This document shows, in pieces, positions 4,576-42,695 of a DNA stretch of 64,000 nt. Under the pieces are notes generated by a model, which worked only from the letters and a program-made list of their open reading frames with translations, was not told where the DNA came from and made no database searches. The first letter of the stretch is position 1; every line of letters starts with the position of its first letter. Made by a program: the position numbers and the translations under genes. The DNA comes from Zunongwangia sp. HGR-M22. GTDB lineage: Bacteria; Bacteroidota; Bacteroidia; Flavobacteriales; Flavobacteriaceae. Location of the stretch: assembly GCF_027594425.1 (NCBI RefSeq), contig NZ_CP115159.1, positions 1,167,001-1,231,000 of the forward strand. The letters are read 5' to 3'.

Positions 4576-6930
4576 TTAAAACATTCCGCCGCCTTGGGCT
4601 TCATCGTTATCTCTTTGTTTTCTTTTTAATTTCTTAGCATTATTACCTCCAAAACGATAGCTGAATCCTACATATACGTTTTGAAATTCACTTTTAAAAA
4701 TTCCATTTTGTTCGTAAGGTCTGGTAGTGCTAAACTTATATTCTTGCGTTCCAAAAACATCATTAAAGTTTAAACTAACTGTAGCTTTGTTATCCAAAAA
4801 CGAATAGCGTCCGCCAATATTCGCAAAAAATACATCTTCATTTTTAAACTGAAGTTCCTGGCTTGGGCCTCTGTAAAAACCAAATAACTGCAAAGTCAAA
4901 TCTTCGGTGACAGAAAAGCTATTATTAATTCTGGCAGTGTAAACAGTATTGTCTACTTCAACAAAATCGCTTCCTACGACACCACTTTGGGTTTGTTGGT
5001 ACAATTCGAAACTGCCATTTGCGCTCCACCATTCAGTAAATTTATAGTTAGAAGATAATTCAACACCATAAGCATTCGTGTCATCAAAATTAGCAAAGGA
5101 AATAAATAGGCTTGCAGGATCTGATGGATCTTCTTCAATTAGTTGATTAATATTATCATTAATATTTCTGAAGAAAACACCTCCCGTAAAACTTCCGTTT
5201 TTAAGATTTCTGGTATAATTGAATTCTATCGAATTTGTAAACTGTGGTTGTAAATCTGGATTTCCTAAAACTGTAATTGTAGGAGTACTAATCTGTCTTA
5301 CGGGACTTACCTGGCTCAAACTCGGGCGATCAATCCTTCGACTATAACTTATCTGATAGGTGTTTTTTTCGTTTGGCGTATAGTTGAAAAACCCAGAAGG
5401 ATACAATGTGATATAATCATCCTCAAAGACGTTTTCTCCATATACCTCTGCATCGATATCAAAACTTTCTAAACGCGCTCCTACTTGATAAGAAAATTTC
5501 TCGTAATTCTGGCCAAATGTGCCGTAAAGCGAATAGATATTACGATCGTAGCTATAGTCTGAATCTTGTGCTAATGGATTATTAGTATCATAATCCTGTT
5601 CGTTATTTAGGATTCTTGCTTCAGCGCCTGCTTCAAATTTAGAACGTTCTCCAATAGGTAAGGTGTAATCAATATTAGTGATTAAAGTTCCTCGATCTTC
5701 AATTACATCTTCAGTATAAGAATCAAAAGAAGCGTTTTCGCTGAAATTTGCAGTAAAATCTTCATTACCGTCATAATCATTATAATCTGCTTCAAATAGA
5801 ATTTCGTGACCTTCTTTAGCAAACAAATGCTTATATGCGAAATTGTAAGTAGCATTATTACTTTCAAAATCAATATTTAGAAGCTGGTCAAAACTATTAG
5901 AAGGATTGTTTAGATATATTGCATTAATTGTGGCATCTAGGCCACCATCAAAAATGTTTTGATTGGTATAAAAGCTAAAAGTATTATTATCGTCTAAAAA
6001 ATAATCAACGCCAACTTTGTAGATATAAGAATTGTTATCGTTCAGCATATCCAGGTTTTGCTTCGCGTCTCTTCCTACAAGATTGATATTGTTAATGTTT
6101 TCGCGTTTTCCAAAATTGCTTCCTAGGTTGGCGTAGAAATTAAATTTTCCCTGGCGATAGTTGAGATCCAAAGAACCATTTAAACGTGCATTTTCACCAT
6201 AGGTTAGTCCGGTATTTAAATTTCCATTAAATCCGTTATTCGCATTTTTATGCAGCACAATGTTGATTATTCCGCTCATACCTTCAGGATTATATTTTGC
6301 TGAAGGATTAGTGATTAATTCAATTTTTTTGATTGAAGTAGAAGGGATCTGCTTTAACAACTGGGCAGGATCCATATTTGTTGGTTTGCCATCAATTAAA
6401 ATTCTTACGTTAGAATTTCCCCTAAGTGCAATGTTACCGTCCTGATCTACATTTACAGATGATACATTATTCATTATTTCTGAAGCGGTGGCTCCGGTAG
6501 TGGTTAGATCTTTCCCTACATTAATAATTTTGCGGTCAATTCGCTGTTCGATCGTTGAGCGTTCGCCTACCACGGTTACTTCATCCATTTCAGCAACAGC
6601 AGCTTCAAGGTTAATGATTCCTAAATCTATTGCTCCGGAATTTCGCGTGATTTCAATTTCCTTTGAGAATTTGTTGTAACCGATAAATTGAATCCCCAGC
6701 GTATAATTGCCCGGTTTTACTTTTTTGATGATGAATGACCCGTCTTCCTCTGATGTAGTTCCTGTGATGATTTTTCCTTCGGTATCCTGTAAACTAATTG
6801 TGGCATAAGGAACAGGTTCCTGTAAGTCTAAATCCATAATAGTTCCTGAAATTCTTGCAAATGGATCATTATTTGCAACTGAATGAAAAGAGGATAATGT
6901 AAGGATGATGATTACGAAAAACTGTTTCAT
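4576..6930 (-). CDS. TonB-dependent outer-membrane beta-barrel receptor
   Basis: A 784-residue outer-membrane protein with a cleavable signal peptide (MKQFFVIIILTLSSFHSVAN). Residues about 25-110 form a carboxypeptidase-regulatory-like Ig domain (ISGTIMDLDLQEPVPYATIS, then GNYTLGIQFIGY). A plug follows near 120-230 (NVDQDGNIALRGNSNVRILI, NPSAKYNPEGMSGIINIV), then a barrel of the outer-membrane beta-barrel family common in Flavobacteriia. The barrel ends at SFRYRFGG and has an extra basic/glycine tail (KKLKRKQRDN to QGGGMF). There is no SusD partner, so it is not a SusC. Substrate unknown; such receptors may carry siderophores, peptides or metals. It is monocistronic, with a long (393-base) region between it and the next gene. 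Confidence 0.88.
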   Translation of the reverse strand: MKQFFVIIILTLSSFHSVANNDPFARISGTIMDLDLQEPVPYATISLQDTEGKIITGTTSEEDGSFIIKKVKPGNYTLGIQFIGYNKFSKEIEITRNSGAIDLGIINLEAAVAEMDEVTVVGERSTIEQRIDRKIINVGKDLTTTGATASEIMNNVSSVNVDQDGNIALRGNSNVRILIDGKPTNMDPAQLLKQIPSTSIKKIELITNPSAKYNPEGMSGIINIVLHKNANNGFNGNLNTGLTYGENARLNGSLDLNYRQGKFNFYANLGSNFGKRENINNINLVGRDAKQNLDMLNDNNSYIYKVGVDYFLDDNNTFSFYTNQNIFDGGLDATINAIYLNNPSNSFDQLLNIDFESNNATYNFAYKHLFAKEGHEILFEADYNDYDGNEDFTANFSENASFDSYTEDVIEDRGTLITNIDYTLPIGERSKFEAGAEARILNNEQDYDTNNPLAQDSDYSYDRNIYSLYGTFGQNYEKFSYQVGARLESFDIDAEVYGENVFEDDYITLYPSGFFNYTPNEKNTYQISYSRRIDRPSLSQVSPVRQISTPTITVLGNPDLQPQFTNSIEFNYTRNLKNGSFTGGVFFRNINDNINQLIEEDPSDPASLFISFANFDDTNAYGVELSSNYKFTEWWSANGSFELYQQTQSGVVGSDFVEVDNTVYTARINNSFSVTEDLTLQLFGFYRGPSQELQFKNEDVFFANIGGRYSFLDNKATVSLNFNDVFGTQEYKFSTTRPYEQNGIFKSEFQNVYVGFSYRFGGNNAKKLKRKQRDNDEAQGGGMF

Positions 6931-7230
6931 TTTTTGATTGATGTTTTGATGTTGTTTTGTTATAGATAATACTTTGTATTACATAATACGAACACGTATA
7001 TTTTTATAATATTGATGATTTCTACTATAAAGACGACGCTAAAAAATTAATGTTACAGAAAACCTGAATTAATTTTTAAAAAAAAGTTCGCGCCTTGCAA
7101 CCAGCGCGAACTTTAAAAGCATTGCTATCTTCTAACCATCAAAAAAAGATAGCAACAGCATTTTTAGACTAGTCTTACTATAAAGACTGATAAGTTTTAA
7201 ACTTGTTACAGTAATTTTTAAAAAGTATTT
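6931..7230. other. Intergenic region, no gene seen
   Basis: About 300 AT-rich bases upstream of the TonB receptor with no credible reading frame on either strand. It contains the hairpin at 7084-7115 and is followed by the dispersed repeat at 7231. The receptor promoter should be in its left part, but I could not place a convincing TAnnTTTG box. Confidence 0.6.
7084..7115 (-). terminator. Strong hairpin, minus-strand terminator candidate
   Basis: AAGTTCGCGC and GCGCGAACTT form a perfect 10-bp stem around a 10-base loop. Read on the minus strand it is followed by a run of T (the A tract at 7078-7083). No minus-strand gene ends close by. The nearest upstream minus-strand gene is the symporter, whose stop is at 7657, so a transcript ending here would run antisense across the CoA-binding gene. 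Confidence 0.65.
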
Positions 7231-7317
7231 TTACTCGATAATCGAGATGACATGTTGAGATTTGCCTCGACATAAAAATAAATTACAAAAAAATCATGGG
7301 CTTGCCCTTAGTTAATT
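7231..7317. repeat. Dispersed intergenic repeat, copy A
   Basis: This stretch shares ordered blocks with 23614-23706: an identical 14-mer TTACTCGATAATCG, then TTGCCTCGA 31-32 bases later, then ATGGGxxTGCCxTTAGxTAATT. CTCGATAATCGAG in this copy is a 13-base palindrome. Both copies are intergenic and in the same orientation, and an indel of about 6 bases separates the second and third blocks. Confidence 0.65.
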
Positions 7318-7323
7318 AATAAT

Positions 7324-7686
7324 ATGAAGAAAAAGACTTTAGTAATAGGCGCTTCAACTAATCCAGCCAGATATTCTAATATGGCTATTAAAAAGTTGAA
7401 AAGCAAACAGCAACCTACAGTAGCTCTTGGATTAAGAGAAGGCGAAGTTGATGGAGTAAAGATCGAAAATGAAAAAATAATTTTTTCTGATATTGATACG
7501 GTCACATTATATGTTGGACCAAGAAATCAGCCGGAATATTACGAGTATCTGGTAGCATTAAATCCAAATCGAGTAATTTTTAATCCTGGGACAGAAAATC
7601 CTGAATTATATAAAATTTTGAAACAAAATAATATAGAATTTCAGAATGCCTGTACTTTAGTGATGCTTGGTACGAATCAATACTAA
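7324..7686 (+). CDS. CoA-binding domain protein (YccU-like)
   Basis: A 120-residue single-domain Rossmann protein of the CoA_binding_2 family. The N-terminus [20 protein letters not shown] has the glycine-rich turn that holds the nucleotide, and [17 protein letters not shown] and [12 protein letters not shown] match the later conserved strands and loops. Members bind CoA in crystal structures, but a biological role is not established. The start follows the dispersed repeat directly. Its 3' end overlaps the end of the convergent symporter gene by 30 bases. Confidence 0.85.
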
Positions 7687-9120
7687 ACCTAAGAAAGTTA
7701 TTGCGCCGTTTACAATTAGCAATTCATAATTAAATACATAACCGCCAAGATATTCTGGTGGTATATTACCAATTACAAAAGTTAAGGCTACAGAGATTAT
7801 GGCAACGATCCATACCAGGTGATCTTTGATTTTCATTTTGGTGAAAATCCCAAAGGCAAACAGTCCAAGTAGAGGGCCATAGGTATAACTAGCCGCTTTT
7901 AGCAAAAGATCAATCACGCTACTGTCTAGAAGATATTTAAAAGCCATAATCACAATTACAAGCAGTATGCTTATTAAAATATGTGCTCGCTTTCTAATAC
8001 CGGTTTGGTCACTTACTTCTCGTTTTTCTATATCCAGAAAGTCTACACAAAAGCTGGTGGTTAAACTGGTAAGTGCGCTATCGGCGCTAGAATATGCAGC
8101 TGCAATAAGGCCAAGCAAAAAGATAATGGCCAGTCCTATTCCCATTTCAGCATTTAAAGCAATTTCGGGAAAAAGAAGATCGGTTTTTTCTTTACCATCC
8201 AGCATAGGAATATTAATCCCATTTTGTTCAGCATAAATAAACAATAAGGCTCCTAGAAAAAGAAATAATATGTTAACCGGAATAAATACTAAACTGTAGG
8301 ACATCACGTTTTTCTGAGCATCTTTTAGGCTTTTGCAGGTTAAATTTTTCTGCATCATGTCCTGGTCGAGTCCCGTCATACAAATTGTGATAAACATACC
8401 GCCAAAAAAAGCTTTCCAGAAATAATCCTTTTCAAGGAAGTTATCAAAATGAAAAGTTTCAGTGTAAGGAGCAAGTTCCGGTGCGGTAAAAAAGTCGTTA
8501 AACGTCCAATTTAATTCGGTTGAAATAAAATAGATTGCAATACCTACAGAACCTAGCATAAATAAGGTTTGTAGCGTATCGGTATAAACAATTGTTTTAA
8601 TACCGCCTCGCGATGTATAGATCCAAATAAGTAATATAGAAAGGACTACGGTTACCACAAAAGGAACATTCCATGCTTCAAAAACAAAGTATTGCAATAC
8701 GGTAGCTACCAGAAAAAGTCGAAATGAAGCTCCTAAAACTCTAGATATAAAAAAGAAAAAAGCACCGGTTTTGTAACTTACAATTCCGAATCGGTTATTC
8801 AAATATTGATAAATTGAAGTTACATTGAGGCTGTAGTAAATAGGAAGCAATACAAATGAAATAACCAGATAGCCAAATAAATAACCTGCTACTACCTGCA
8901 TATAACTAAACTGGGAATCTCTAACCCAACCGGGAACCGAGATGAATGTCACGCCAGATAGAGAAGCGCCAACCATACCAAAAGCTACGATGTACCATGG
9001 CGATTTACCTTCAGCCTTAAAAAAAGCTTCATTACTATCTTCCTTACCAGTGAAATAAGAGATGAGCATTAAAACTCCAAAATAAATAACGATAAGCAGG
9101 ACAATGTGTATGGGCTCCAT
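7657..9120 (-). CDS. Sodium:solute symporter (SSS family)
   Basis: A polytopic inner-membrane transporter of 487 residues with about 13 hydrophobic segments, of the SSS family that imports sugars, amino acids or other small solutes with Na+. Conserved parts visible: the N-terminal [20 protein letters not shown], the unwound first helix region [16 protein letters not shown], and [17 protein letters not shown], which carries the SSADS serines of the second sodium site. I chose the ATG at 9120 (MEPIHIV); the frame extends six codons upstream only to a TTG. It is convergent and overlapping with the CoA-binding gene, and divergent from recR. Substrate not predictable. Confidence 0.9.
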
Positions 9121-9190
9121 ATCTATAAATTTAACCAAATGCTTTGCAAACTTAGCATAATCGTAACTATTAGCATCGATTTAAAAATCG

Positions 9191-9198
9191 TAAATTTG
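9191..9198 (+). promoter_or_regulatory. -7 promoter element of recR
   Basis: TAAATTTG fits TAnnTTTG exactly and ends only five bases before the recR ATG at 9204. The mRNA would therefore start within a few bases of the start codon, which makes the transcript nearly leaderless. Confidence 0.65.
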
Positions 9199-9203
9199 TC
9201 GCT

Positions 9204-9821
9204 ATGGATTTTTCTTCGAAATTATTGGAGCAGGCTGTAGATCAAATGTCACAGTTGCCCGGTATAGGAAAACGTACCGCCTTACGGCTGGTATTACATT
9301 TATTACGGCAGCCAGAAACACAAACTGAGCAGTTAACAAAGGCACTATCTAAACTGAAATCGGAAGTAAAACGTTGTCGAAATTGCTTTAATATTAGCGA
9401 TACCGAATTGTGCGATATCTGCGCCAATCCTTCCAGACAGGAAGAAGTAGTTTGCGTGGTAGAAGATATACGTGATGTTATGGCTATAGAAAATACGGGT
9501 CAGTATCGCGGGATGTACCATGTATTAGGCGGAAAAATAAGTCCTATGGATGGGATAGGACCTTCGCAACTTACTATTAAACCTTTGATAGATAAAGTGA
9601 AAGACGGAAAGATAACAGAGATTATCTTCGCCTTAAGTAGTACAATGGAAGGTGATACCACCAATTTTTATATCTACAAACAGCTTGAAGGTACCAACGT
9701 AAAGACGTCCACCATTGCACGGGGAATTAGTGTTGGTGATGAATTGGAGTATGCCGATGAGGTTACACTAGGTAGGAGTATTACTAATCGCATACCTTTT
9801 GAAAATAGTCTAAAAAATTAA
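9204..9821 (+). CDS. recR: Recombination protein RecR
   Basis: A 205-residue RecR of standard length. It acts with RecO (and RecF) to load RecA on gapped single-stranded DNA during recombinational repair. Domains in order: helix-hairpin-helix ([18 protein letters not shown], residues about 17-34), a four-cysteine zinc finger ([16 protein letters not shown], about 57-72), the Toprim domain ([20 protein letters not shown] onward, about 80-175) and a C-terminal Walker-B-like stretch ([20 protein letters not shown]). The gene is monocistronic, with a promoter almost touching its start. Confidence 0.97.
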
Positions 9822-10005
9822 AATGTATAAGTCTATTATTTTTGGGTTGATAGATGAAATTGTAATTTTACACAGCAAATTTTTTAAGATAGACGTAAAA
9901 ATATTTTCAGTGAATTTATATTTTATTGATTTTTTAATATTTAAAAACCTTTATTTTAAGTAAATTCGCAAACAAAATAATAAAAAATAGCTTTCGAATA
10001 TAGAT

Positions 10006-32350: not shown

Positions 32351-32427
<77 letters not shown>

Positions 32428-32448
32428 AGGCCATATATAAATGGCATC

Positions 32449-32486
32449 AAAAACCTTGTTAATCTATTGATTTTCAAGGTTTTTTT
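32449..32486 (+). terminator. Terminator downstream of tRNA-Pro
   Basis: AAAAACCTTG (32449-32458) pairs with CAAGGTTTTT (from 32475) and runs into T7. It lies 24 bases after the tRNA. Confidence 0.85.
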
Positions 32487-32536
32487 ACTTTTAAGGTACT
32501 TTATCATATCATTTGCAATCATTAAAAATGAGTCCG

Positions 32537-32560
32537 ATTCGGTGACCTATTCGGTGACCT
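32537..32560 (+). repeat. Tandem 12-bp direct repeat upstream of the integrase
   Basis: ATTCGGTGACCT occurs twice back to back with no mismatch, 79 bases before the integrase start. Its place between the tRNA and the recombinase gene fits an arm-type integrase site or an operator; neither is shown. Confidence 0.7.
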
Positions 32561-32638
32561 TTTTTTAAGTATATTGTAGCTCATATTGATTTGACTTTCG
32601 TTTTCACGCCTTTTTGTCTAATTTGAAAACGAAACACT

Positions 32639-33850
32639 ATGAAAAATGCCGTAAGTTTTGGAATTATTTTTACTCCAAAATTGTCAAAAGCAAAAAATGG
32701 TACTGCTCCGTTGTATGCACGGATTACCGTAAATGGAGAACGTATTGAACTCAGTCTTAAACGCAGGATTACTCTAAACCTCTGGAATGAGAAGCGTAGC
32801 CGACTAAAAGGCTATAGCGAAGAGAGTTTACAGGTTAACAAATCCTTAGATCGTATCTTCAATAAAATTTACGAGGCCTTTAGGCAACTTCAGGAAGAAA
32901 ATAAGCATTTAAGCGCTAAAAGCATTAAAGCTCGTTATTTGGGATTAGATGATTCCTATAAGACTTTAGCCGAACTTATGACCTATCATAATACCAAAAT
33001 GACTTCGGTATTAAAACCAGGAACGATGAAAAACTACTATACGACTGAAAAGTACGTATTAGAATTCCTGAACAAGAAGATGAATACCAAAGATATTTAT
33101 CTAAAACAACTTAATTATCGTTTTATCACTGATTTTGAACATTTCCTTCGCAATTATAAACCAAAAACACATCGACGACGACCAACCAATAATGGGGTGA
33201 TGAAACATTTGGAACGCTTAAAAAAGCTAAGCAATCTTGCTTTAAAAATGGAATGGATCGAAAAAGATCCTTTTGCGAGATATTCGTTGCATTTTAAGAA
33301 TAAGGAAAGAGATTATTTGCTTCAAAGAGAAATTGAAACTTTGGCAAACTTAAATCTGGAAAGAGAAACCCTATCCAGAACAAGAGATATTTTTATATTT
33401 TCCTGTTATTCCGGATTATCTTATGGCGATGCTAAATCATTGGAACGAAGACATATTGTAAAAGGTATTGATGGGAATAATTGGATTGTAAAAGAGAGAG
33501 AAAAGACCGGCAAACTTTTTAAAGTACCGATGCTGCCGAGGGTAAAAGCCATTCTCAAAAAATATCAAAGTGAATCTAAAGTCAGTGGGTTTTTACTCCC
33601 TGTATATTCCAATCAGAAAATCAACCAGTATTTAAAAGAGTTAGCAAAGCAATCCAAAATATCAAAGAGGCTTACATTTCATGTAGCTCGTCACACTTTT
33701 GCAACCACGGTAACTTTGTCAAACGGAATCCCAATTGAGACAGTATCTAAACTTCTGGGACATACAAAGCTTTCCACAACTCAAATTTATGCAAGGGTAA
33801 TTGATTCCAAAATTTCGGACGATATGGAGAAGTTGAAAGATATATTATAA
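32639..33850 (+). CDS. Tyrosine recombinase (IntDOT-like integrase) 1
   Basis: A 403-residue site-specific integrase. An N-terminal arm-binding part (RITLNLWNEKRSRLKGYSEE) is followed by the SAM-like core-binding domain (about 105-205) and the catalytic domain (from about 215). Catalytic residues visible: Lys in REKTGKLFKV, HxxR in HVARHTFATT, His in LGHTKLS and nucleophile Tyr in QIYARV. The usual first Arg is replaced: the box reads SCYSGLSYGDA, with Ser where most integrases have RTGxR. That is a known trait of the CTnDOT integrase group. It lies 215 bases from the 3' end of tRNA-Pro in the same direction, as integrative elements often do. Confidence 0.93.
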   Translation: MKNAVSFGIIFTPKLSKAKNGTAPLYARITVNGERIELSLKRRITLNLWNEKRSRLKGYSEESLQVNKSLDRIFNKIYEAFRQLQEENKHLSAKSIKARYLGLDDSYKTLAELMTYHNTKMTSVLKPGTMKNYYTTEKYVLEFLNKKMNTKDIYLKQLNYRFITDFEHFLRNYKPKTHRRRPTNNGVMKHLERLKKLSNLALKMEWIEKDPFARYSLHFKNKERDYLLQREIETLANLNLERETLSRTRDIFIFSCYSGLSYGDAKSLERRHIVKGIDGNNWIVKEREKTGKLFKVPMLPRVKAILKKYQSESKVSGFLLPVYSNQKINQYLKELAKQSKISKRLTFHVARHTFATTVTLSNGIPIETVSKLLGHTKLSTTQIYARVIDSKISDDMEKLKDIL

Positions 33851-33988
33851 ATCCTGATGTTTGTTGATTTAAAATTAAACGGATGATATTTTTTTCAATA
33901 TATGAGGAAGTCCTTTTGTGTTTCTTTTTTTATGATGATTTTTAAATTCATTTGACCTATTTATCTTTAAATGAAATCAAATAATAAA

Positions 33989-34017
33989 GGTTGCAGGTTT
34001 GAATCCTGCGGGGGTCA
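33989..34017 (+). pseudogene. 3' fragment of a tRNA other than tRNA-Pro
   Basis: GCAGG-TTTGAAT-CCTGC is a complete T arm, followed by GGGGGTC (3' half of an acceptor stem) and A as discriminator. No matching 5' half (GACCCCC) or anticodon arm lies upstream, so only the tRNA end is present. The acceptor sequence differs from tRNA-Pro (CATCCCG). This is the usual footprint of an integrase att site. Confidence 0.75.
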
Positions 34018-34041
34018 CTTTTGAAGAAGATAAATGATTAT

Positions 34042-34075
34042 AAAACCACGCAAATCCTAGGAATTGCGTGGTTTT
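34042..34075 (+). terminator. Terminator after the tRNA fragment
   Basis: AAAACCACGCAA and TTGCGTGGTTTT form a perfect 12-bp stem with a 10-base loop. Its spacing after the tRNA fragment (25 bases) is like that of the terminator behind tRNA-Pro, so the fragment and its terminator may have come together. Confidence 0.85.
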
Positions 34076-34151
34076 CGCGTTTTTAGAGGAACATTTAAAA
34101 TGGTATGATTTCATTCTATTTGGTAGCTAAAGTATACCTCTAAATTAAAAG

Positions 34152-34166
34152 TACACCTCAGGTGTA
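34152..34166. promoter_or_regulatory. 15-base palindrome upstream of integrase 2
   Basis: TACACCT-C-AGGTGTA is a perfect palindrome with 7-bp arms, 83 bases before the integrase start. A related AGTATACCTC lies just upstream (from about 34131). It could be an operator or an integrase/excisionase arm site. Confidence 0.45.
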
Positions 34167-34249
34167 TTTTATAGATTTTAGATGTTATAATTTTTAAAGG
34201 TGGATTTGACTTCCAGAAACTGAATTATTCACTTTAAAAATGCATTATT

Positions 34250-35473
34250 ATGCGTACATCAAAAACATTTTCGGTAGTTTTTTGGCTTAATAAAAAGAAA
34301 GTCAAAAATAATCAAAGTCTAATCTATGCCCGTATTACCGTAAATTCGAAACGGGCCAATATTAGTTTAAAGCGATATGCTTCAATAGATCTTTGGAATT
34401 CTAAAACGAAGCGCTTAAAAGGGAATTCTAAGAAAACCCTTGAGATCAATGAATTCCTAGATCAGAATTATGCAAGATTCCATCAAATTTATCAAGATCT
34501 TAAATTCAAAGGAAAGTTGATTACTTCAGATTTGGTTAAAGCTGAATTCAATGGGGAAGGAGGGAGTTCCAAAACCTTAAATGAGCTTATCGAATATCAT
34601 CAGGATAAAATTAGGAATACGCATAGTGCCGGGAGTATTCGGAATTTTAAAGTAAGTGAGAAGTATATTAAGGAATATGTACATCAAAGGCTGCGGACAA
34701 CAAATATTTACCTCTCACAATTAGACTATAAGTTTCTGAGTGATTTTGAAGCTTTTCTTTTTAATTACTATCCCAAAGGTCATCATAAAGCGATGAGCCA
34801 TAATACGGTGATGAAACATATCCAGCGCTTGCGTAAAATGGTAACCTTGGCTTTTCATTTAGAATGGCTCGATAAAGATCCCTTTAGACGATGGAAAATG
34901 ACCTTTGAAAAAAGGGAGCGGGATTTTCTTTCTAAGAACGAATTGTCAAATCTACAACATATGGAGATTCCGCTTGATCGGCTAGATCGCATTCGGGACT
35001 TATTTATCTTTAGTTGCTATACAGGTTTAAGCTACGGAGATTTGATAGAATTATTGGAAGATGAAATAAGTGTAGGAATAGATGGAAAAGCCTGGATTAT
35101 AACAAAACGGAATAAGACGAATAGCGCTGTTAAAGTACCTTTACTAGCACCAGCTCTCAAAATTTTAGAAAAGTATAGAGATCATCCTATTACCCAGGTT
35201 ACTGATACGTTATTACCACAATGCAGCAATCAAAAAGTAAATTTATACCTTAAAGAACTTGCTATTCTTGCCGGCCTTAAAAAGAACTTAACCTTTCATA
35301 TGGCTCGACATACTTTTGCGACCACAGTAACCTTAAGCAACGGAGTGCCTATAGAAACAGTATCGAAACTATTGGGACATACCAAAATAGCAACGACACA
35401 AATTTATGCTCGTGTTTTAGAAGATAAAATAAGTAAGGATATGGAGGATTTGAGAAAGAGGCTTGATAGTTGA
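34250..35473 (+). CDS. Tyrosine recombinase (IntDOT-like integrase) 2
   Basis: A 407-residue paralogue of the upstream integrase, clearly related along its full length (YARITVNSKRANISLKRYAS against YARITVNGERIELSLKRRIT) but well diverged, so it is not a recent duplication. Catalytic residues: HxxR in HMARHTFATT, His in LGHTKIA, Tyr in QIYARV. As in integrase 1, box I reads SCYTGLSYGDL, without the first Arg. It lies 232 bases from a tRNA 3' fragment that differs from tRNA-Pro, which suggests a second element inserted beside the first. Confidence 0.93.
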   Translation: MRTSKTFSVVFWLNKKKVKNNQSLIYARITVNSKRANISLKRYASIDLWNSKTKRLKGNSKKTLEINEFLDQNYARFHQIYQDLKFKGKLITSDLVKAEFNGEGGSSKTLNELIEYHQDKIRNTHSAGSIRNFKVSEKYIKEYVHQRLRTTNIYLSQLDYKFLSDFEAFLFNYYPKGHHKAMSHNTVMKHIQRLRKMVTLAFHLEWLDKDPFRRWKMTFEKRERDFLSKNELSNLQHMEIPLDRLDRIRDLFIFSCYTGLSYGDLIELLEDEISVGIDGKAWIITKRNKTNSAVKVPLLAPALKILEKYRDHPITQVTDTLLPQCSNQKVNLYLKELAILAGLKKNLTFHMARHTFATTVTLSNGVPIETVSKLLGHTKIATTQIYARVLEDKISKDMEDLRKRLDS

Positions 35474-35712: not shown

Positions 35713-36207
35713 TTACTTTATAATCGAACTAATGGTTTCTATACGTTCTAAAAGTGTGTTTACAAACTCCTCTTTGCTCACTAAATAATTTTTATATTTC
35801 CCGGTGGTTTTGCCACCGGTCATAGACACGCTAATACGCCAATTACCATCTGAAAGTTGACTGCCTAAAGTTGGGATTTCTTCCGAAGAGATAAGTAGTA
35901 TCTTATCACTCATTTTCATTTTGCTTTGATCGAAGCTAAATGCAACGATATAATAGGAATGATGGGGTTTGAAGGTGTTGCCGTTAATGGTTAAGATTAA
36001 ACGGTTACGTTTGTGTACATTAAAGCGTGTTTTTACCTGTAAATAGATTGGTGTGTAGAGCTTTTCTTTTAATACGATGAGATCGATCCCCCTATCATCA
36101 ATTACAGGTTTGTAGACATTGAGCAAGCCCTGGCTGTACAATAAAATGATTTCTTTTGCCCAATCTTCGCCAATATTACCTTTCATTTGGGAGGATAAGC
36201 CCGACAT
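35713..36207 (-). CDS. PD-(D/E)XK-like (DUF4365/Mrr-type) nuclease candidate
   Basis: A 164-residue protein with the core of a restriction-endonuclease fold: a helix with Glu (MKGNIGEDWAKEII), then Asp in DRGIDLIVLKEK, then QVK in PIYLQVKTRFN. The order E-D-QxK matches DUF4365 and Mrr-like nucleases, in which Gln stands in the usual Glu position. The remaining beta strands (NRLILTINGNTFKPHHSYYI) also fit. It is in the same direction as the restriction-type operon but 272 bases away, with a gene remnant and a repeat between them. A nuclease effector or a DNA-binding relic are both possible. Confidence 0.6.
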   Translation of the reverse strand: MSGLSSQMKGNIGEDWAKEIILLYSQGLLNVYKPVIDDRGIDLIVLKEKLYTPIYLQVKTRFNVHKRNRLILTINGNTFKPHHSYYIVAFSFDQSKMKMSDKILLISSEEIPTLGSQLSDGNWRISVSMTGGKTTGKYKNYLVSKEEFVNTLLERIETISSIIK

Positions 36208-36413: not shown

Positions 36414-36480
36414 GCGTTGGCGAGAAAGCTCTTTGCAACCGCAGGAACGAGGAATGCAATGTGCTTGAACTTGCGTTGGC
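36414..36480. repeat. Direct repeats GCGTTGGC bounding a 51-base spacer
   Basis: GCGTTGGC occurs at 36414-36421 and 36473-36480. The second copy touches the HNH stop codon and the first abuts the gene remnant. The spacer is more GC-rich than its surroundings and contains TTGCA/TGCAA pairing. The location at the end of the four-gene operon suggests a recombination boundary. Confidence 0.5.
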
Positions 36481-37547
36481 TAATCATTAATTTTCGAGCT
36501 TCCAGCCACCTCTCCAATCGCTTTTACTAAATGCCTATTAGATTTTAAACTTTCTAAATAAGGTGCTTTTAAGAAGCCCAACTGATCATCAGAATCATCC
36601 TCTATTACGTCATCAAAGGCATTTTCTACTGAGTAATTATTAATCTTTTCTTTATACTTTCTGTAATGTTTGTCAACTTTAGTAAACCAACCAATTCTAT
36701 TACTGCTAATTCTTTCAAAGTATCTTGATTTGATGTCAAATATTCTATCCCACGATTCAGTTTTATCATCTTTCAAATTAAAATCTACTTTGATTTCCGA
36801 TTTGGTGATTTTACTTTTTAGATCGTCTGTTGGTTCAATTAGTTTTTTTAAGGCTTTTTTGTCCACATTAACAGTTACTTCAATACTTGGATGAGTTTTA
36901 GCAAAGGGATAATAAGCTGGTTTGCCCTCCTTGAGTACATCTACTTCTCCTTTTTCATCTGAATTGCAAGTTGTACAGATTGGAACCAGATTGTTAAAAT
37001 TCGTTGAAGAAAAGGGATAGTGTTTTTGTGGAAGGTAATGGTCAAATGCTGACCTCCCTTTTGAGTAAATTGTCTTCAAGTCCCCGAAACCACAGCAAGG
37101 GCAATCAACGAAACCATTCTTCAAGTTCAATTCATCATAGTAGGTTTTCTTTTCTCCATATGTATCCCGAATTACTTTCCAACCTAAAAATCTGGTGTAT
37201 AGCTCTTTGAAGAAAGGTTTTAGGACTTTGATTAGACCTTCATTTAGAGTACTCAGGGCTATAGGAGTAATTGTTCCAGCACATAGTTCTTCAATCCTAT
37301 TATTGTGGGCAAATGCATTTTTAAAATCCTCTTTTTCCTGAATTGTTAGTGATTTACAAACTTTGTAAATAGCCTTAACCTGTTCTTGAAACCAGGGTTG
37401 ATCTTCGTATAAGGCTTTTAGTTCATCATTGAGTTTGCTCTTACATTGCTTTTTATCTGCCTTACACCATACCTCATTAACCAAATACTCGATCAAGTTA
37501 TGAGCTTTGTAAATGTCATGTGATATGGACTTATAGACTCTAAGCAT
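36480..37547 (-). CDS. HNH endonuclease of an HsdM/S-ATPase operon
   Basis: A 355-residue protein with a zinc-braced HNH nuclease near its centre: CPCCGF (about residue 150), then the catalytic SAFDHYLPQKHYPFSS with Asp-His, NNLVPICTTCNSDEKG with Asn and the second CxxC. N-terminal helices (1-130) and a C-terminal helical region flank it. Composition resembles PtuB-type HNH proteins that work with an ATPase. The start overlaps the end of the ATPase gene by 8 bases, so the two are translationally coupled. I infer that it is the cutting subunit of the system, standing in for the absent HsdR. Confidence 0.85.
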   Translation of the reverse strand: MLRVYKSISHDIYKAHNLIEYLVNEVWCKADKKQCKSKLNDELKALYEDQPWFQEQVKAIYKVCKSLTIQEKEDFKNAFAHNNRIEELCAGTITPIALSTLNEGLIKVLKPFFKELYTRFLGWKVIRDTYGEKKTYYDELNLKNGFVDCPCCGFGDLKTIYSKGRSAFDHYLPQKHYPFSSTNFNNLVPICTTCNSDEKGEVDVLKEGKPAYYPFAKTHPSIEVTVNVDKKALKKLIEPTDDLKSKITKSEIKVDFNLKDDKTESWDRIFDIKSRYFERISSNRIGWFTKVDKHYRKYKEKINNYSVENAFDDVIEDDSDDQLGFLKAPYLESLKSNRHLVKAIGEVAGSSKIND

Positions 37548-39210
37548 CAGTATCTTCTAATTCATTTAGTCGTGCGAACAATAGTATTTTTTCCATTGAA
37601 TCACCAAGATGGTTTGTAAGCAATTTATATTCCTGAACTTCTTGAGGGGATAATTTCTTTCTTTTTGCAATATCCTTCTGTATGTCTTCTATTTCTTTTC
37701 TGGAAAGATCACCAATTGTATTTCGCTTTTTGAAAATGTTTTCCATGATGATATCAACGGAAGTACCATACGTTCTAAAGTTCATATCCCTTGCATTTAT
37801 CGGTTGTTTATTCTTTTCAAAAGCAATTACCTTATCAGGATAGCAGTCTGAAATAATGAAAGGCGAATGAGATGTTATCAGAATATCTGTCATAAGGTTG
37901 TTACTTTGTGAGTGATCCAAACTCTTCTTTAGAGTTCGGATAAACTTTGATCGCCAATCAGGATTAAAATGCGTTTCAGGTTCATCTAATAGTAACAAAG
38001 CACTTTTGTCTTTCAGCATCAGACAAATCCCCATTGTATGAAGAAATTGTTGTTCGCCATCTGAAAGATTTTTCATGAGCAATGGAACAGCTTCTTTAGA
38101 ATCAGGATATTTTTTCTTGATATAGTAGTCTAGAAAAAAGAATACTTTTTCCTGAGGTTCAGGATTTGGTACTTTCCCATCCGTGTAAAATCCTTTAGAT
38201 TGATATACATCTGATTTAATTTCAGGTTTTACGGTTCGATAATTTAGGGTATAAAGAATTTGAAAAGCCTGAAATAATTTAAAAGGGTTGTTTGAAAAGT
38301 TGGCTTTGAAAGTCTCTTTACTAGCCGAGTTTATCCAAAAATCTAGAGTCAGTTTATCTTTCTCTTCGTAGCATGTCGTAGCACACCGTTTAAAAGCATC
38401 TATAACTTCTTTGTATTGTTCAAGAATCCTCTTGTTCTCATGGAGATGTAGATTAAGATTCATTCGAAAACGAATAATATCAGCAATTCCCAATTCTTTG
38501 TGCAAAGGTTCTAGGACTTCTTTTTTCTGAAATATTAAATTAGCTAAAAGAACAGCTTGACTCATTTCATAATCAACGTATAGCAAGCTACTTTCGGGCT
38601 CTTTATATTCTGCTTTCTTTTCTAGAGCAACTCGGTATTCATCAAAGTGAAGAAGACGAGTCTTCAAAAACGGAATACTTAAAATTTCATTTTCACCCGA
38701 AGAATACCCAATTACCAAATCTGGTAAATAACGTTTAGCAGGTGCAGGTTTGGAAGCAAACTTTTCTGCAACGACTGAAACGGGTATAGGCTCCTTGTCA
38801 AAGGGAAAGGGCTGATAAGTCATTACCGGAAGACCATCATCCTTTTTTCTTTTTTCTTTCTTGCTAATACAAACCTTGATTAAATTCTCAATTTTATATT
38901 CCTTATCCTGACATATATAATACTCCAATCCAAAAGCATTGGGTTTACAGATTTCAGGCCTAAAATTGTCTTGAAAGTTTTCGGGTTGATTGACATTTGC
39001 ACAACTCTCAATATGATAGAAGATATTAGCAAGTGCTTCTAAAACATTTGATTTGCCGCTTCCATTTAGTCCTGCGAAACAGAAAGGGTGAAAATCAGTC
39101 CAATCTAGTTGACTAGGAATTTGATCTTCATATGGAGTTCTGAATTGTAGTTTAAAGCCTTCTTTAATACTTCCATAATCTGAATTGATATGTAATTTTA
39201 GAAGCTTCAT
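37540..39210 (-). CDS. Restriction-associated AAA ATPase (SMC/OLD-like)
   Basis: A 556-residue ATPase of the ABC/SMC-like AAA_15/AAA_21 group. Walker A GLNGSGKSNVLEAL is at about residue 48. The signature NLSDGEQQFLH is near 390, Walker B with catalytic Glu LLLLDEPETHFNP near 415, and the H-loop ITSHSPFIISD near 450. There is no Toprim domain as in OLD nucleases and no helicase motifs as in HsdR. The middle (150-380) is helical. It overlaps hsdS by 4 bases (ATGA) and the HNH gene by 8. It may sense DNA state or phage entry and drive the HNH partner, as PtuA does for PtuB in Septu; that is inference. Confidence 0.88.
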   Translation of the reverse strand: MKLLKLHINSDYGSIKEGFKLQFRTPYEDQIPSQLDWTDFHPFCFAGLNGSGKSNVLEALANIFYHIESCANVNQPENFQDNFRPEICKPNAFGLEYYICQDKEYKIENLIKVCISKKEKRKKDDGLPVMTYQPFPFDKEPIPVSVVAEKFASKPAPAKRYLPDLVIGYSSGENEILSIPFLKTRLLHFDEYRVALEKKAEYKEPESSLLYVDYEMSQAVLLANLIFQKKEVLEPLHKELGIADIIRFRMNLNLHLHENKRILEQYKEVIDAFKRCATTCYEEKDKLTLDFWINSASKETFKANFSNNPFKLFQAFQILYTLNYRTVKPEIKSDVYQSKGFYTDGKVPNPEPQEKVFFFLDYYIKKKYPDSKEAVPLLMKNLSDGEQQFLHTMGICLMLKDKSALLLLDEPETHFNPDWRSKFIRTLKKSLDHSQSNNLMTDILITSHSPFIISDCYPDKVIAFEKNKQPINARDMNFRTYGTSVDIIMENIFKKRNTIGDLSRKEIEDIQKDIAKRKKLSPQEVQEYKLLTNHLGDSMEKILLFARLNELEDTDA

Positions 39211-40601
39211 TCTACAACTTTGAGTTTTATTTCATTTCCATCCAATACCTGTTCAATGCTTCCATCTTCTAGCAACTCTCTTAACCTGTCCCAAGCAAGA
39301 TCATAAGATTCAAACTCAGAGAATCGAGGTTCTTTACAATCAATCCATTTCAAAAGGTGTTCTAAACGTTCGCCTTGTTTTAAGTCTTCTTTAGTGAATG
39401 TTTGCAAAAGAGATTCAAATACTTCCTCTTCGTTTATTTGACTTTCTTCATTAAAAGAATCTTGAAGTGTTGCTTGAAAAAGGGTTTTTAATGAATTCAG
39501 TGATTGGTTTAATAAACCTTTCATTTTTTCAACTGAATCATTTTTATGTGTAAATCTTTTTTGAAGTTCTAAACTGGGATTTGTGACTTCAAGGTTCTTA
39601 ATTTTTGAAACACTTAATATTTTTTGCCTTGCTCCAATTCTTTTGGTTAAAAAATATTCTTTACCCAAAAGAATAGAATAATAGATGAATTCAGTCGTAC
39701 ATCTGCTAGGATCTAATTTTGAAAAGGCTACATTTTGATTACATGCAGATATAGTTGTAGTTATGCCTAATTTCAAGGCTGCGGTATCAACCATACCAAT
39801 CAATAAACTATTCTTTTGTATATATTTTGCACTTGAGTTTGAAATTGCTTCATCACTAATTCTCTTTAGACTTTCCTTTAAAAAAGTATTATTTAATTCT
39901 CCAGATGTGTACCATGGTACATTTCCTGTGAAAAAGGAAGGAATGTCTTTGGAAGGGGTTCCTCCACTTTTCCATTCACCAAAAAAGGAAAGAGGCTTCT
40001 TTCCGATCTTTTTATTGTCCAAAACAGGGTCACCAAACATCTCTAGGAAAACAGATCGGATATATTTATCAAGTAATTGATTTGTATCTACTCGTTTATC
40101 AATGAGTTCTTGGATTCTATTAAGTCGACCGACAATCTTGTATTGATCTTCAAAGTCTTTTGGGAAAACAACTCTAATTCGTTTGATGAGTTTATTGTTA
40201 AGCATTGACAATACTGAAGTATTGGCCTTGTTTTCCAAAACCCTTTTATTCAATCTAATCCAGTAATAAAATAATTCAGGAAGAATGATTTCTTCATTCA
40301 CTAGTATTCCTGTCAATTGCTGATTTGACGCAACAGGCTTTTTTACAATTGCCGTTTTCCCGATATCTCCTATCGTAGAAATAAGGACTGTTCCTGATTG
40401 GTATAAAAACGCCTTCTTGTCTTCCAAGGCTATTTCAGAAATTTTTCTTTCAGAATCGTTAGCAAGTTTCTGTCCTTTTAAGTCTGATGGACCAATCCAA
40501 GGTCTCTCTCCATCAAAATACTCGGGATTGGAGGTCGGAGGTGTTTTACCTGTTTTCACTTCTAATGCTAGCTCACCGATAGTATATTCTACAAACTCCA
40601 T
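39207..40601 (-). CDS. hsdS: Type I specificity subunit HsdS with C-terminal extension
   Basis: A 464-residue HsdS with two target-recognition domains (residues about 5-160: TGKTPPTSNPEYFDGERPWI; about 195-365: SGGTPSKDIPSFFTGNVPWY) and conserved helical spacers (RLNRIQELIDKRVDTNQLLD; SVEKMKGLLNQSLNSLKTLF). It sets the methylation sequence, likely bipartite. About 75 extra residues follow the second spacer (EEEVFESLLQTFTKEDLKQG, WDRLRELLEDGSIEQVLDGN), with winged-helix-like composition, not part of ordinary HsdS. It lies 4 bases after hsdM and overlaps the ATPase gene by 4. Confidence 0.92.
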   Translation of the reverse strand: MEFVEYTIGELALEVKTGKTPPTSNPEYFDGERPWIGPSDLKGQKLANDSERKISEIALEDKKAFLYQSGTVLISTIGDIGKTAIVKKPVASNQQLTGILVNEEIILPELFYYWIRLNKRVLENKANTSVLSMLNNKLIKRIRVVFPKDFEDQYKIVGRLNRIQELIDKRVDTNQLLDKYIRSVFLEMFGDPVLDNKKIGKKPLSFFGEWKSGGTPSKDIPSFFTGNVPWYTSGELNNTFLKESLKRISDEAISNSSAKYIQKNSLLIGMVDTAALKLGITTTISACNQNVAFSKLDPSRCTTEFIYYSILLGKEYFLTKRIGARQKILSVSKIKNLEVTNPSLELQKRFTHKNDSVEKMKGLLNQSLNSLKTLFQATLQDSFNEESQINEEEVFESLLQTFTKEDLKQGERLEHLLKWIDCKEPRFSEFESYDLAWDRLRELLEDGSIEQVLDGNEIKLKVVE

Positions 40602-40605
40602 AGCA

Positions 40606-42207
40606 CTAAAAATTTCTTAACTCTTCAAGTCCTTGGTTAATCTCTAATTCCAATTCCGTGATCTTCTTTAGAATCTTTTCAGAGGGTTCAAACTCCTGTG
40701 GTTCATAAATAAAGTCCTTGTACAAGTTGAAATTCAATTCGAATCCATTATCCTTAATTTCTTTGAAAGGAATATTAAAATGAATCAATTTTCTATCTGA
40801 TTGATTTTCTCGCGGTTTGTTATTCCAATGCTCTATAACCATGGGTAAAGGAGACTCCTTCAATCTTTTTCTGTTAGAGTCCAAGGTGTAACCATCTGAA
40901 TCCATTCCATAGAACCATACCTCTGTGTTTTGTGGTTTGTCAGAACCGTTTTTCCATTTACGTTTTGTGAATAATAGGATAGAAGTTTTTACCCCAGTAT
41001 AAGGCTGAAAAACTCCACTTGGCATTGAGATTACACCATCTAAATTACAGTCAGTCATTAGAACTTCACGCACCGCTTTGTGTGCTTTTCCTGAATTAAA
41101 CAGAACTCCTTCCGGAACAATAACAGCAGCTCGTCCGCCTTCCTCCAACATGTAAACCATCCTTTCCAAGAATAGCAATTCAGACTGTACTGTTTGTTTT
41201 TTGCGTTTAGTTTCTTCTCTATCTTCATACGCAGGCGGGTAAATACGATCTAAATTTTCGCTTACTCTAGGACTATCAATTTTTCCTGTAAATGGAGGGT
41301 TTGCCATTATGTACTTAAACTGTCCTTGCAAAGCTGGATTTGCTAAAGAACTTTTGTCTCTTATATTTAAAGTAATGGATAGACGATCGGCTTCCCATTT
41401 TTCGTAAGCAGTAGATAGAGAATCTAAGTAAACAATATGAGGTTTTGAGATGCCGTGCATCATTAAATTCATCACACCAATACGAACCATAGTTCGGTCA
41501 ATATCAAAACCGTAAAAAGTCTCTTCCTCTAATTTCTTTCTTTGGTTTTTGGTTAGTTTACTTCCGTCTGTTCCTTTCATTAAACCATCATCATCTGGTT
41601 TAACAGATTTAGAATACTTGGTGATTAGGTACTGAAAAGCTCCAACCAAAAAACCTCCCGAACCAGAAGCTAAATCTAAAATTTTACCATCCAAATCTGG
41701 ATCAAGTAATTCAGCCATCATATGAATGATATGCCGAGGGGTTCGGAATTGCCCATTTTTTCCTGCCTCAGATGTGTGTTTTAAAAGATGCTCATAAACA
41801 TCACCTTGTATATCATGAAAGTGCTGATTCTTGTTATTTATTTCATTATCGATATCCTCGTATATAGAATCGATAAATTCAATAGCATTTCTAAGCAAGT
41901 TTGGATTATCTATGTCAAATGAAGCGTTAGACATTGCTTGAGCAAAAGGTTCATCCTCCTTACTTAATTCAGTTTTAATGAACTGAAAGACATTTTTAAC
42001 TCTACTAACTAACTCATTGTCATTTTTGAGTTTACTGTAATTACTCCATTTATAATTATCACCAACAGAAGAATTGAAATTTTCCAATCGTTTCATGAAT
42101 AACAAATAGGAAATTTGTTCTATGGCTGATATAGGATTCGCAAATCCAGACGACCAGAGACGATCCCATAAGTTTTGAACTTTATTTTGTATTTCTCTTG
42201 AAAGCAT
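40606..42207 (-). CDS. hsdM: Type I methyltransferase subunit HsdM
   Basis: A 533-residue N6-adenine methyltransferase of type I systems. An N-terminal helical HsdM_N domain (IQNKVQNLWDRLWSSGFANP) precedes the SAM motif I (ILDLASGSGGFLVGAF) and motif IV NPPF in YIMANPPFTGKID, the adenine methylation site. Length is standard and all motifs look intact, so methylation is probably functional. It is the first gene of the four-gene operon. No hsdR gene is found anywhere between 32.4 and 54 kb. Confidence 0.95.
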   Translation of the reverse strand: MLSREIQNKVQNLWDRLWSSGFANPISAIEQISYLLFMKRLENFNSSVGDNYKWSNYSKLKNDNELVSRVKNVFQFIKTELSKEDEPFAQAMSNASFDIDNPNLLRNAIEFIDSIYEDIDNEINNKNQHFHDIQGDVYEHLLKHTSEAGKNGQFRTPRHIIHMMAELLDPDLDGKILDLASGSGGFLVGAFQYLITKYSKSVKPDDDGLMKGTDGSKLTKNQRKKLEEETFYGFDIDRTMVRIGVMNLMMHGISKPHIVYLDSLSTAYEKWEADRLSITLNIRDKSSLANPALQGQFKYIMANPPFTGKIDSPRVSENLDRIYPPAYEDREETKRKKQTVQSELLFLERMVYMLEEGGRAAVIVPEGVLFNSGKAHKAVREVLMTDCNLDGVISMPSGVFQPYTGVKTSILLFTKRKWKNGSDKPQNTEVWFYGMDSDGYTLDSNRKRLKESPLPMVIEHWNNKPRENQSDRKLIHFNIPFKEIKDNGFELNFNLYKDFIYEPQEFEPSEKILKKITELELEINQGLEELRNF

Positions 42208-42415
42208 ATATTACAGATTAGAAATAATAAGCCCTTTAGTATTTAAACCTAAAGTTGGTTAAAGGCAAATTTACTAAACTGAACGACTGATCCTAATCTC
42301 GGGAAAGAAAATGAATAATTTAAATGTAATATTTAGTTTTGACAGAAGAATTTTAAAATTTAATAATCAACAAACATGAAAAGTTATTAATTATAAAATC
42401 ATGTAAACGTTTATT

Positions 42416-42640
42416 TTACCGTAATTTTTCAACTAATTTAAAAAAATCGGAAAGGGAAAGATTTCTGGATTCACATATCTTCTGCAGAGTACCAATGGAT
42501 ATTCGATATTCTTTTTCATCTAATAATCGTCTTACTGTTTTTTCATCAATATTATGACTTATTGCAAATTCACGATTTGATTTGGCATTTTTAATCCAAA
42601 CTGAAATACAACTATTAATGTCCCTATAAATCTTTTGCAT
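42416..42640 (-). CDS. Small HTH (XRE-like) regulator
   Basis: A 74-residue protein built around a helix-turn-helix (SNREFAISHNIDEKTVRRLL, then ISIGTLQKICESRNLSLSDF), the size of a restriction-system controller protein. I chose the ATG at 42640 (MQKIYRD); the longer frame to 42691 would run into the operator. A TTCTTTTG box lies 4 bases before this ATG, so the mRNA would be nearly leaderless. It is upstream of hsdM in the same direction (208-base gap) and has a perfect inverted repeat just upstream of its promoter. Control of itself, of hsdM and perhaps of the divergent RNA is inferred. Confidence 0.75.
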   Translation of the reverse strand: MQKIYRDINSCISVWIKNAKSNREFAISHNIDEKTVRRLLDEKEYRISIGTLQKICESRNLSLSDFFKLVEKLR

Positions 42641-42667
42641 AGAACAAAAGAAAAATTTTAACATAAG

Positions 42668-42695
42668 AATTATGCGGACAAAAATCCGCATAATT
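42668..42695. promoter_or_regulatory. Perfect 11-bp inverted-repeat operator
   Basis: AATTATGCGGA (42668-42678) and TCCGCATAATT (42685-42695) are exact inverse complements with a 6-base spacer. The site is 28 bases upstream of the HTH gene and 8 bases before the -33 box of the divergent rod-RNA promoter. It is the natural binding site for the HTH protein. Confidence 0.75.

What the first reader, a model, noticed from the sequence alone, without database searches (positions are those of the whole stretch)
36480..42640. Type I methylase and specificity genes joined to an ATPase-HNH pair, with no HsdR
Seen: four genes overlap or nearly touch (gaps of +4, -4 and -8 bases) in the order hsdM, hsdS, SMC/OLD-like ATPase, HNH nuclease, preceded by a controller-like HTH gene. 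No reading frame with HsdR helicase motifs lies nearby. Known: type I systems need HsdR to move on DNA and cut; Septu uses an ATPase (PtuA) and an HNH nuclease (PtuB) without a methylase. Inferred: this is a hybrid defence system in which methylation marks self and an ATPase-HNH effector acts on unmarked DNA. The single operon argues against chance neighbours.
Basis: partly seen in the sequence, partly recalled or inferred. Interest (0 to 1): 0.87.

Follow-up and report, generated by a model that had tools for sequence, protein, structure and literature searches.

The report
Type I methylase with PtuA-like ATPase-nuclease
A bacterial DNA-marking (type I methylase) gene pair is joined in one operon to an ATPase and an HNH nuclease in place of the usual cutting motor HsdR; the same four genes recur together across many bacteria with HsdR repeatedly missing, which suggests that an ATPase-nuclease pair can act as the weapon of a type I-like self/non-self DNA defence.

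Summary
On the minus strand, hsdM-hsdS-ATPase-HNH sit with gaps of +4, -4 and -8 bases and no hsdR nearby. The only HsdR in this complete 4.04-Mb genome lies in a separate, complete type I operon. The ATPase belongs to NCBIfam TIGR04435 ('restriction system-associated AAA family ATPase'), so its link to restriction was already noticed; the HNH partner is 'hypothetical protein' in the plasmid records I opened. In 80 relatives the four genes stay together. An EcoEI-type hsdR precedes hsdM in 37; 30 with enough upstream sequence have none, and the tree needs at least 12 changes. The window's own clade lacks hsdR throughout. HsdS carries a C-terminal tail whose profile, over 396 Bacteroidota genomes, hits only beside these ATPases (8 of 8). 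TRD2 is swapped between near-identical operons while tail, ATPase and HNH are kept; catalytic motifs are intact. The ATPase is PtuA-like; the HNH shares only the core motif with PtuB. Best reading: a type I-like system in which the methylase complex directs or restrains a PtuAB-like effector, hsdR being optional. Whether the effector cuts unmethylated DNA or is a PrrC-like guard cannot be settled by sequence. New variant of a known kind.

The parts
40606..42207 (-). hsdM: N6-adenine DNA methylase subunit (533 aa), SAM motif DLASGSGGFL and NPPF intact
   Evidence: Pfam N6_Mtase 198 bits, HsdM_N 32.7; NPPF in 72 of 73 aligned HsdM, the exception a broken ORF
39207..40601 (-). hsdS: DNA specificity subunit (464 aa), two TRDs plus C-terminal tail
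   Evidence: Pfam Methylase_S 107 bits, two stretches; PADLOC Specificity_I 180 bits
39522..40004 (-). TRD2 of HsdS (about residues 200-360), swapped between close operons
   Evidence: 13-38% identity to L036-L038 here, while the ATPase is 90-95% and HsdM 89-96% identical
39210..39401 (-). HsdS C-terminal tail (about residues 401-464), proposed docking element for the ATPase
   Evidence: conserved in relatives; profile A7 hits only the 8 TIGR04435 places in 396 genomes; tail distances follow ATPase distances best, rho 0.48
37540..39210 (-). PtuA-like ABC/SMC-head ATPase (556 aa), TIGR04435
   Evidence: 573 bits, cut-off 300; Walker A, signature SDGEQ, Walker B DE and H-loop His invariant in 60 sequences; fold matches PtuA 8eea and 9kjy at E 3e-11
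36480..37547 (-). HNH nuclease (355 aa), helical N-terminal region plus HNH core
   Evidence: Pfam HNH 22 bits; C149, C152, D169, H170, N186, C194, N195, K199 invariant in 64 sequences; model pLDDT 93.5
36951..37103 (-). HNH catalytic core (residues 149-199: CPCCG...DHYLP...N..NL.P.C..CN...K)
   Evidence: aligned to the PtuB DHxxPK core by hhalign, E 7e-6
42416..42691 (-). small HTH_26 (Cro/C1-type) gene, possible local regulator; not a conserved part
   Evidence: Pfam HTH_26 27.9 bits; no homologue in the relatives' loci

Best explanation
An HsdR-optional, type I-like restriction-modification system. HsdM and HsdS form the sequence-specific methyltransferase that marks the host genome and reads unmarked sites. 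A PtuA-like ATPase docks on the complex through the HsdS C-terminal tail and carries an HNH nuclease. An unmethylated target site, or a block of the methylase complex, triggers ATP-dependent activation of the HNH nuclease. In this genome's clade the ATPase-HNH pair has taken over the role of the HsdR motor-nuclease. Shown by sequence: the conserved quartet, the HsdS tail specific to it, TRD swapping, intact motifs, and repeated hsdR absence. Inferred: physical docking, the trigger, and DNA as the target.
For: Quartet order in the loci: |gap| at most 30 bp in 69 of 72 (M-S), 77 of 77 (S-ATPase) and 68 of 73 (ATPase-HNH) pairs. EcoEI-family HsdR upstream in 37 loci, absent in 30 loci plus the window with more than 3.5 kb inspected; at least 12 changes forced by starred branches; window clade of 12 rows has 10 without R and 2 too short to tell. 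No EcoEI-type HsdR above 62 bits in 23 of 26 hsdR-less genomes. Ten of 29 other hsdR-less relatives have no HSDR_N match in any ORF of 500 aa or more, and elsewhere long HSDR_N ORFs lie within about 10 kb of another N6 methylase or are fused to one (read by hand). HsdS tail profile: 8 hits at E<1e-4 in 396 genomes, exactly the 8 TIGR04435 places, while 284 of the 396 have HsdS. Tail distances follow ATPase distances (rho 0.48) better than the HsdS body (0.29) or the HNH (0.13). TRD2 swapped, rest kept. Catalytic residues invariant with and without hsdR. hsdR-less copy on a Priestia plasmid.
Against: No experiment. Related PtuAB effectors degrade tRNA-Tyr (PMC13096335, PMC11555353), so DNA need not be the target. 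About half of the relatives keep hsdR, so the pair may be an add-on there. HNH similarity to PtuB is confined to the core. The tail profile does not detect the extension of the Priestia HsdS. Several neighbours of hsdR-less loci were not classified. No complex was predicted.
Confidence: 0.55

Rival explanations
1. PrrC-like guard: the methylase complex holds the ATPase-HNH pair inactive, and phage inhibition of the complex (Ocr- or Stp-like) releases it to cut tRNA or DNA and abort infection. In hsdR-less loci the methylase is a decoy.
For: PrrC, an anticodon nuclease inside a type I operon, is sequestered by the R-M complex and released on phage infection (PMC3874165, PMC12707154). PtuAB of retron-Eco7 and of Septu EcB88 degrades tRNA-Tyr (PMC11555353, PMC13096335). 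The ATPase fold also matches AriA of PARIS. Physical coupling through the HsdS tail fits equally well.
Against: Repeated absence of hsdR with TRD2 still diversifying is more natural if site recognition itself is the trigger. PrrC is a single protein, here there are two. Nothing in the sequence shows a tRNA target.
Confidence: 0.22
2. The ATPase-HNH pair is an independent Septu-like module embedded in a type I operon, with no functional link to HsdM/HsdS.
For: Precedents of unrelated modules inside type I operons: TgvAB in Vibrio cholerae VPI-2, protective without HsdR nuclease activity (PMC11411939), and DarTG2 in EPEC (PMC12255303).
Against: No TIGR04435 ATPase was found away from hsdS. An HsdS tail occurs only with this ATPase and co-varies with it. 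M-S would be useless passengers in the many hsdR-less loci, yet TRD2 is exchanged.
Confidence: 0.12
3. A degraded type I system: hsdR lost, the remainder an orphan methylase (epigenetic regulator) with leftover genes.
For: hsdR is absent in many lineages and orphan methylases are common (general knowledge).
Against: All four genes intact with invariant active sites; the hsdR-less clade spans several families and phyla and one copy sits on a plasmid; ATPase and HNH are kept beside hsdM-hsdS (loci were chosen by the ATPase).
Confidence: 0.06
4. An HsdR encoded elsewhere in the genome works in trans with this HsdM/HsdS.
For: One HsdR exists in the genome.
Against: It lies in its own complete type I operon and is of a different family from the EcoEI-type HsdR that accompanies this system. 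Ten of 29 other hsdR-less relatives show no full-length HsdR.
Confidence: 0.05

Closest known systems
NCBIfam TIGR04435 restriction system-associated AAA family ATPase
   Same: The ATPase is a full member (573 bits, cut-off 300). The name already records the association with restriction genes.
   Different: The model covers only the ATPase. The HNH partner is annotated 'hypothetical protein' in the two plasmid records opened. No paper in the library searched names the family.
Septu (PtuA ATPase + PtuB HNH) and type I-A retron PtuAB
   Same: ATPase PtuA-like by profile (PADLOC PtuA1 177 bits; hhalign E 4e-46) and by fold; partner is an HNH nuclease with the DH...N...CN core.
   Different: Linked to hsdM-hsdS in every locus examined; HNH larger (355 aa against 211 for the retron PtuB chain) with only core similarity; scores 50.7 against a cut-off of 500 for NF041760 PtuA.
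Type I restriction-modification (EcoEI-type HsdR2M2S)
   Same: HsdM and HsdS; EcoEI-type HsdR in the same operon in 37 relatives.
   Different: No HsdR here; extra ATPase-HNH pair and HsdS tail.
EcoprrI / PrrC
   Same: An ABC-type ATPase effector encoded inside a type I operon (PMC3874165).
   Different: PrrC is one protein in a complete R-M operon; here two proteins, and hsdR is optional.
MADS (methylation-associated defence system)
   Same: Methylase, HsdS-like subunit and AAA ATPase together.
   Different: All three proteins far below the MADS cut-offs: 163 of 720, 26.7 of 420, 25.9 of 400.

Membership tests
TIGR04435 restriction system-associated AAA ATPase | profile score over the curated cut-off | tested here: met
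   573 bits against 300
Type I restriction-modification | HsdM N6-adenine methylase | tested here: met
   N6_Mtase 198 bits + HsdM_N; NPPF and SAM motif present
Type I restriction-modification | HsdS with two TRDs | tested here: met
   Methylase_S, two stretches
Type I restriction-modification | HsdR translocase-nuclease subunit of the same system | tested here: not met
   none in the operon; the one genomic HsdR belongs to another complete operon; no EcoEI-type HsdR in the genome
Type I restriction-modification | methylates and restricts at a bipartite site | not testable with these tools
   needs long-read methylation data and a restriction assay
Septu (PtuAB) | PtuA-type ATPase | tested here: met
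   PADLOC PtuA1 177 bits full length; hhalign to a PtuA1 set E 4e-46; top fold hits are PtuA
Septu (PtuAB) | PtuB-type HNH nuclease | tested here: inconclusive
   PADLOC PtuB1 24 bits, better to PDC-M01B 56 bits; hhalign only over a 38-column core; top fold hit a chain of a PtuB-containing complex at E 0.32
Septu (PtuAB) | stand-alone two-gene operon without methylase | tested here: not met
   always directly after hsdS in the loci examined
Retron type I-A | reverse transcriptase and ncRNA next to PtuAB; NF041760 cut-off | tested here: not met
   50.7 of 500 bits; no gene recognised as such beside the operon; Rfam finds only a tRNA
MADS | MAD2, MAD3 and MAD5 over cut-off | tested here: not met
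   163/720, 26.7/420, 25.9/400
BREX | PglX over cut-off | tested here: not met
   27.6 of 500 bits
PrrC-type guard | effector inactive until the type I complex is inhibited; tRNA target | not testable with these tools
   needs experiment

The most novel reading that the evidence does not exclude
An undescribed class of restriction-modification in which a type I methylase complex, through a dedicated HsdS tail, directs a PtuAB-like ATPase-HNH effector instead of the HsdR motor: sequence-specific, methylation-gated defence without an HsdR translocase. A similar coupling may have arisen more than once, since PtuA1/PtuB1 pairs whose HsdS does not match this tail also follow hsdM-hsdS without an adjacent hsdR (L138-L141).
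Probability: 0.45. Interest if true: 0.8.

Novelty: new variant of a known kind. Interest (0 to 1): 0.62.

Why it matters
The textbook rule is that type I systems restrict only through HsdR, the motor that translocates DNA before cutting. If an ATPase-HNH pair replaces it, then type I specificity subunits are a general sensing platform for other effectors, and a Septu-type effector gains a defined trigger (a named DNA site and its methylation state). What triggers PtuAB-like effectors would then be directly testable by adding or removing a methylated motif. It would also change annotation: some apparently orphan hsdMS pairs may be active defence systems.

Tried and rejected
Small PD-(D/E)XK-like gene downstream (35713-36207) as a fifth component: no homologue in the 80 loci, rejected. 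HTH gene as a conserved controller: not conserved, rejected. A replacement nuclease common to hsdR-less loci: upstream neighbours are unrelated (MnmE, PLP enzyme, KAP NTPase, YhcG, AbiEii), rejected. Island ends by repeat of the tRNA-Pro 3' end: none in the window (one search used a wrong tRNA end and is void). Phage carriage: no tblastn match in phage records. Literature: no paper on TIGR04435 or on an hsdMS-ATPase-HNH system in the open library; subscription papers and preprints are not covered, and some queries were strict. Sequence search of the HNH against solved structures gave only noise.
Full report
Observation. The window holds, on the minus strand, an HTH gene (42416-42691), hsdM (40606-42207), hsdS (39207-40601), an ATPase (37540-39210) and an HNH gene (36480-37547); gaps in the quartet are +4, -4 and -8 bases. 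Family scans give N6_Mtase/HsdM_N, Methylase_S, HNH and HTH_26. The ATPase is a full member of NCBIfam TIGR04435, 'restriction system-associated AAA family ATPase', 573 bits against a cut-off of 300. So the ATPase's association with restriction genes was already known to annotators.

HsdR in this genome. The genome is one 4.04-Mb contig. TIGR00348 finds one real HsdR, at 2.594-2.596 Mb, plus a weak helicase; HSDR_N finds the same one. It sits in an intact hsdM-hsdS-1477 aa-hsdR operon of its own. A profile of the HsdR that accompanies this system in relatives finds only weak helicase matches (61 bits at most) in the genome; full-length members of that HsdR family score about 1500-1770 bits against a like profile.

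Relatives. A scan of genome contigs with the ATPase alignment found 208 relatives; the 80 best were taken with up to 10 kb on each side. The order hsdM-hsdS-ATPase-HNH recurs, with |gap| at most 30 bp in 69 of 72, 77 of 77 and 68 of 73 measurable pairs. Thirty-seven loci have an about 930-aa ORF upstream of hsdM (two of them partial); the five typical ones scanned have ResIII, EcoEI_R_C and HSDR_N domains, that is, an EcoEI-type HsdR. Thirty loci plus the window have more than 3.5 kb upstream and no HsdR; 12 are too short to tell (two loci with broken ATPase ORFs are outside the tree). On the ATPase tree the HsdR label changes at least 12 times by starred branches; the window's clade of 12 rows has none with HsdR. 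The tree is a quick one, rooted for drawing only, so I do not claim which state is ancestral. In an independent sample of 396 Bacteroidota genomes, 8 have a TIGR04435 ATPase over the cut-off; all 8 have the quartet. Four have HsdR upstream, three do not (the window, G163, G191), and one contig is cut.

Could HsdR act in trans? Reading by hand: of 29 other hsdR-less relatives, 10 have no HSDR_N match in any ORF of 500 aa or more (one of them, L112, has a frame-broken copy of the quartet). In the rest, long HSDR_N ORFs lie within about 10 kb of another N6 methylase or are fused to one. Some assemblies are drafts, and HSDR_N may miss divergent HsdR.

Coupling of the effector to HsdS. HsdS of these loci carries a C-terminal tail with a conserved Y(D/E)..K..(V/L)F..L...G.(I/V).Q.(F/Y)(D/N) pattern. 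A 45-position profile of it, run over 396 genomes, gives 8 matches at E<1e-4: exactly the 8 TIGR04435 places. The next match (E 0.001) lies in an unrelated protein that looks like NAD synthetase. HsdS is present in 284 of the 396 genomes. Two of the 8 were in the profile by construction (the window and G101), so six are independent. Pairwise distances of the tail follow the ATPase best (rho 0.48), then HsdM (0.36), the HsdS body (0.29) and the HNH (0.13, inside the shuffled range). The Priestia HsdS has an extension that this profile does not recognise, and the HsdS of L137-L141 do not match it either. I infer that the tail docks the ATPase; this was not modelled.

The methylase side is alive. 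Against L036-L038 the window's HsdM is 89-96%, the ATPase 90-95% and the HNH 86-93% identical, but HsdS residues 200-360 (TRD2) are only 13-38% identical, while the tail returns to 78-92%. This is the TRD exchange known from active type I systems. SAM and NPPF motifs are present with and without hsdR.

The effector. Walker A, signature, Walker B and H-loop residues are invariant in 60 ATPases; C149, C152, D169, H170, N186, C194, N195 and K199 are invariant in 64 HNH proteins. The ATPase model (pLDDT 88.8) has PtuA of Septu and type I-A retrons as best fold matches, E 3e-11, though TM-scores are low (about 0.35), in keeping with shared domains rather than the same overall shape. By profile it aligns to PtuA1-type ATPases over the full length, E 4e-46. 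The HNH model (pLDDT 93.5) has a chain of a PtuB-containing retron complex as best but not significant match, E 0.32, and aligns to PtuB only over the core. Hence: PtuA-like ATPase, PtuB-like only in the catalytic core.

A wider pattern. More distant loci show PtuA1/PtuB1 pairs directly after hsdM-hsdS with no adjacent hsdR (L138-L141) or with an upstream ORF matching HsdR (L137). So recruitment of PtuAB-type effectors to type I methylases is not confined to TIGR04435. Plasmid copies exist: Priestia without hsdR (L145) and Kovacikia with hsdR (L146); in both records the HNH gene is called 'hypothetical protein'.

Mechanism. The best-supported reading is a methylase-sensing complex that directs a PtuAB-like effector, with HsdR optional. 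Two triggers remain open: an unmethylated site (restriction) or inhibition of the complex (PrrC-like guard). PrrC in EcoprrI is the established precedent for an effector silenced by a type I enzyme (PMC3874165, PMC12707154). Effectors of the PtuAB kind degrade tRNA-Tyr in retron-Eco7 and Septu EcB88 (PMC11555353, PMC13096335), while PMC11555353 states that previously characterised Septu PtuAB degrades DNA. TgvAB and DarTG2 show that unrelated modules can also ride in type I operons (PMC11411939, PMC12255303); the HsdS tail and the repeated hsdR absence argue against that here. I weigh restriction above guard because hsdR-less copies keep exchanging TRD2, but this is judgement, not proof.

Novelty. 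The ATPase family is named; I found no description of the four-gene unit, the HNH partner, the HsdS tail or the hsdR-less clades in the open literature held here. Subscription papers and preprints were not searchable. I file it as a new variant of a known kind.

Noticed in passing
window 32351-35473: tRNA-Pro followed by two tandem tyrosine recombinases (32639-33850 and 34250-35473, + strand; 71% identical DNA in the 3' part); the operon probably lies in an island at tRNA-Pro, but no attachment repeat was found.
   Followed up: partly
window 35713-36207: 164-aa minus-strand gene with a PD-(D/E)XK-like pattern (GEDWAKE...RGIDLIV...IYLQVK), no Pfam match, not conserved with the operon.
   Followed up: partly
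L086 3630-6782: In Chryseobacterium pennae a 1050-aa protein with a SIR2-like domain ends 5 bases before hsdM, in the slot of hsdR: a possible exchange of the effector for an NADase.
   Followed up: no
L116 (G000:2590500-2608500) 5433-9866: The genome's other type I operon carries a 1477-aa protein with a NOV_C domain between hsdS and hsdR.
   Followed up: no
L138, L139, L140, L141: PtuA1/PtuB1 (Septu-type) pairs directly after hsdM-hsdS with no adjacent hsdR: a second, distinct hsdMS-PtuAB arrangement whose HsdS does not match the tail profile.
   Followed up: partly
L053 5963-6943: A YhcG/DUF1016 PDDEXK nuclease gene ends 3 bases before hsdM in an hsdR-less locus.
   Followed up: no
L087 7204-10004: hsdM is missing: a tyrosine recombinase gene lies just upstream and the HsdS N-terminus is replaced, probably a recombined or decaying copy.
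   Followed up: no
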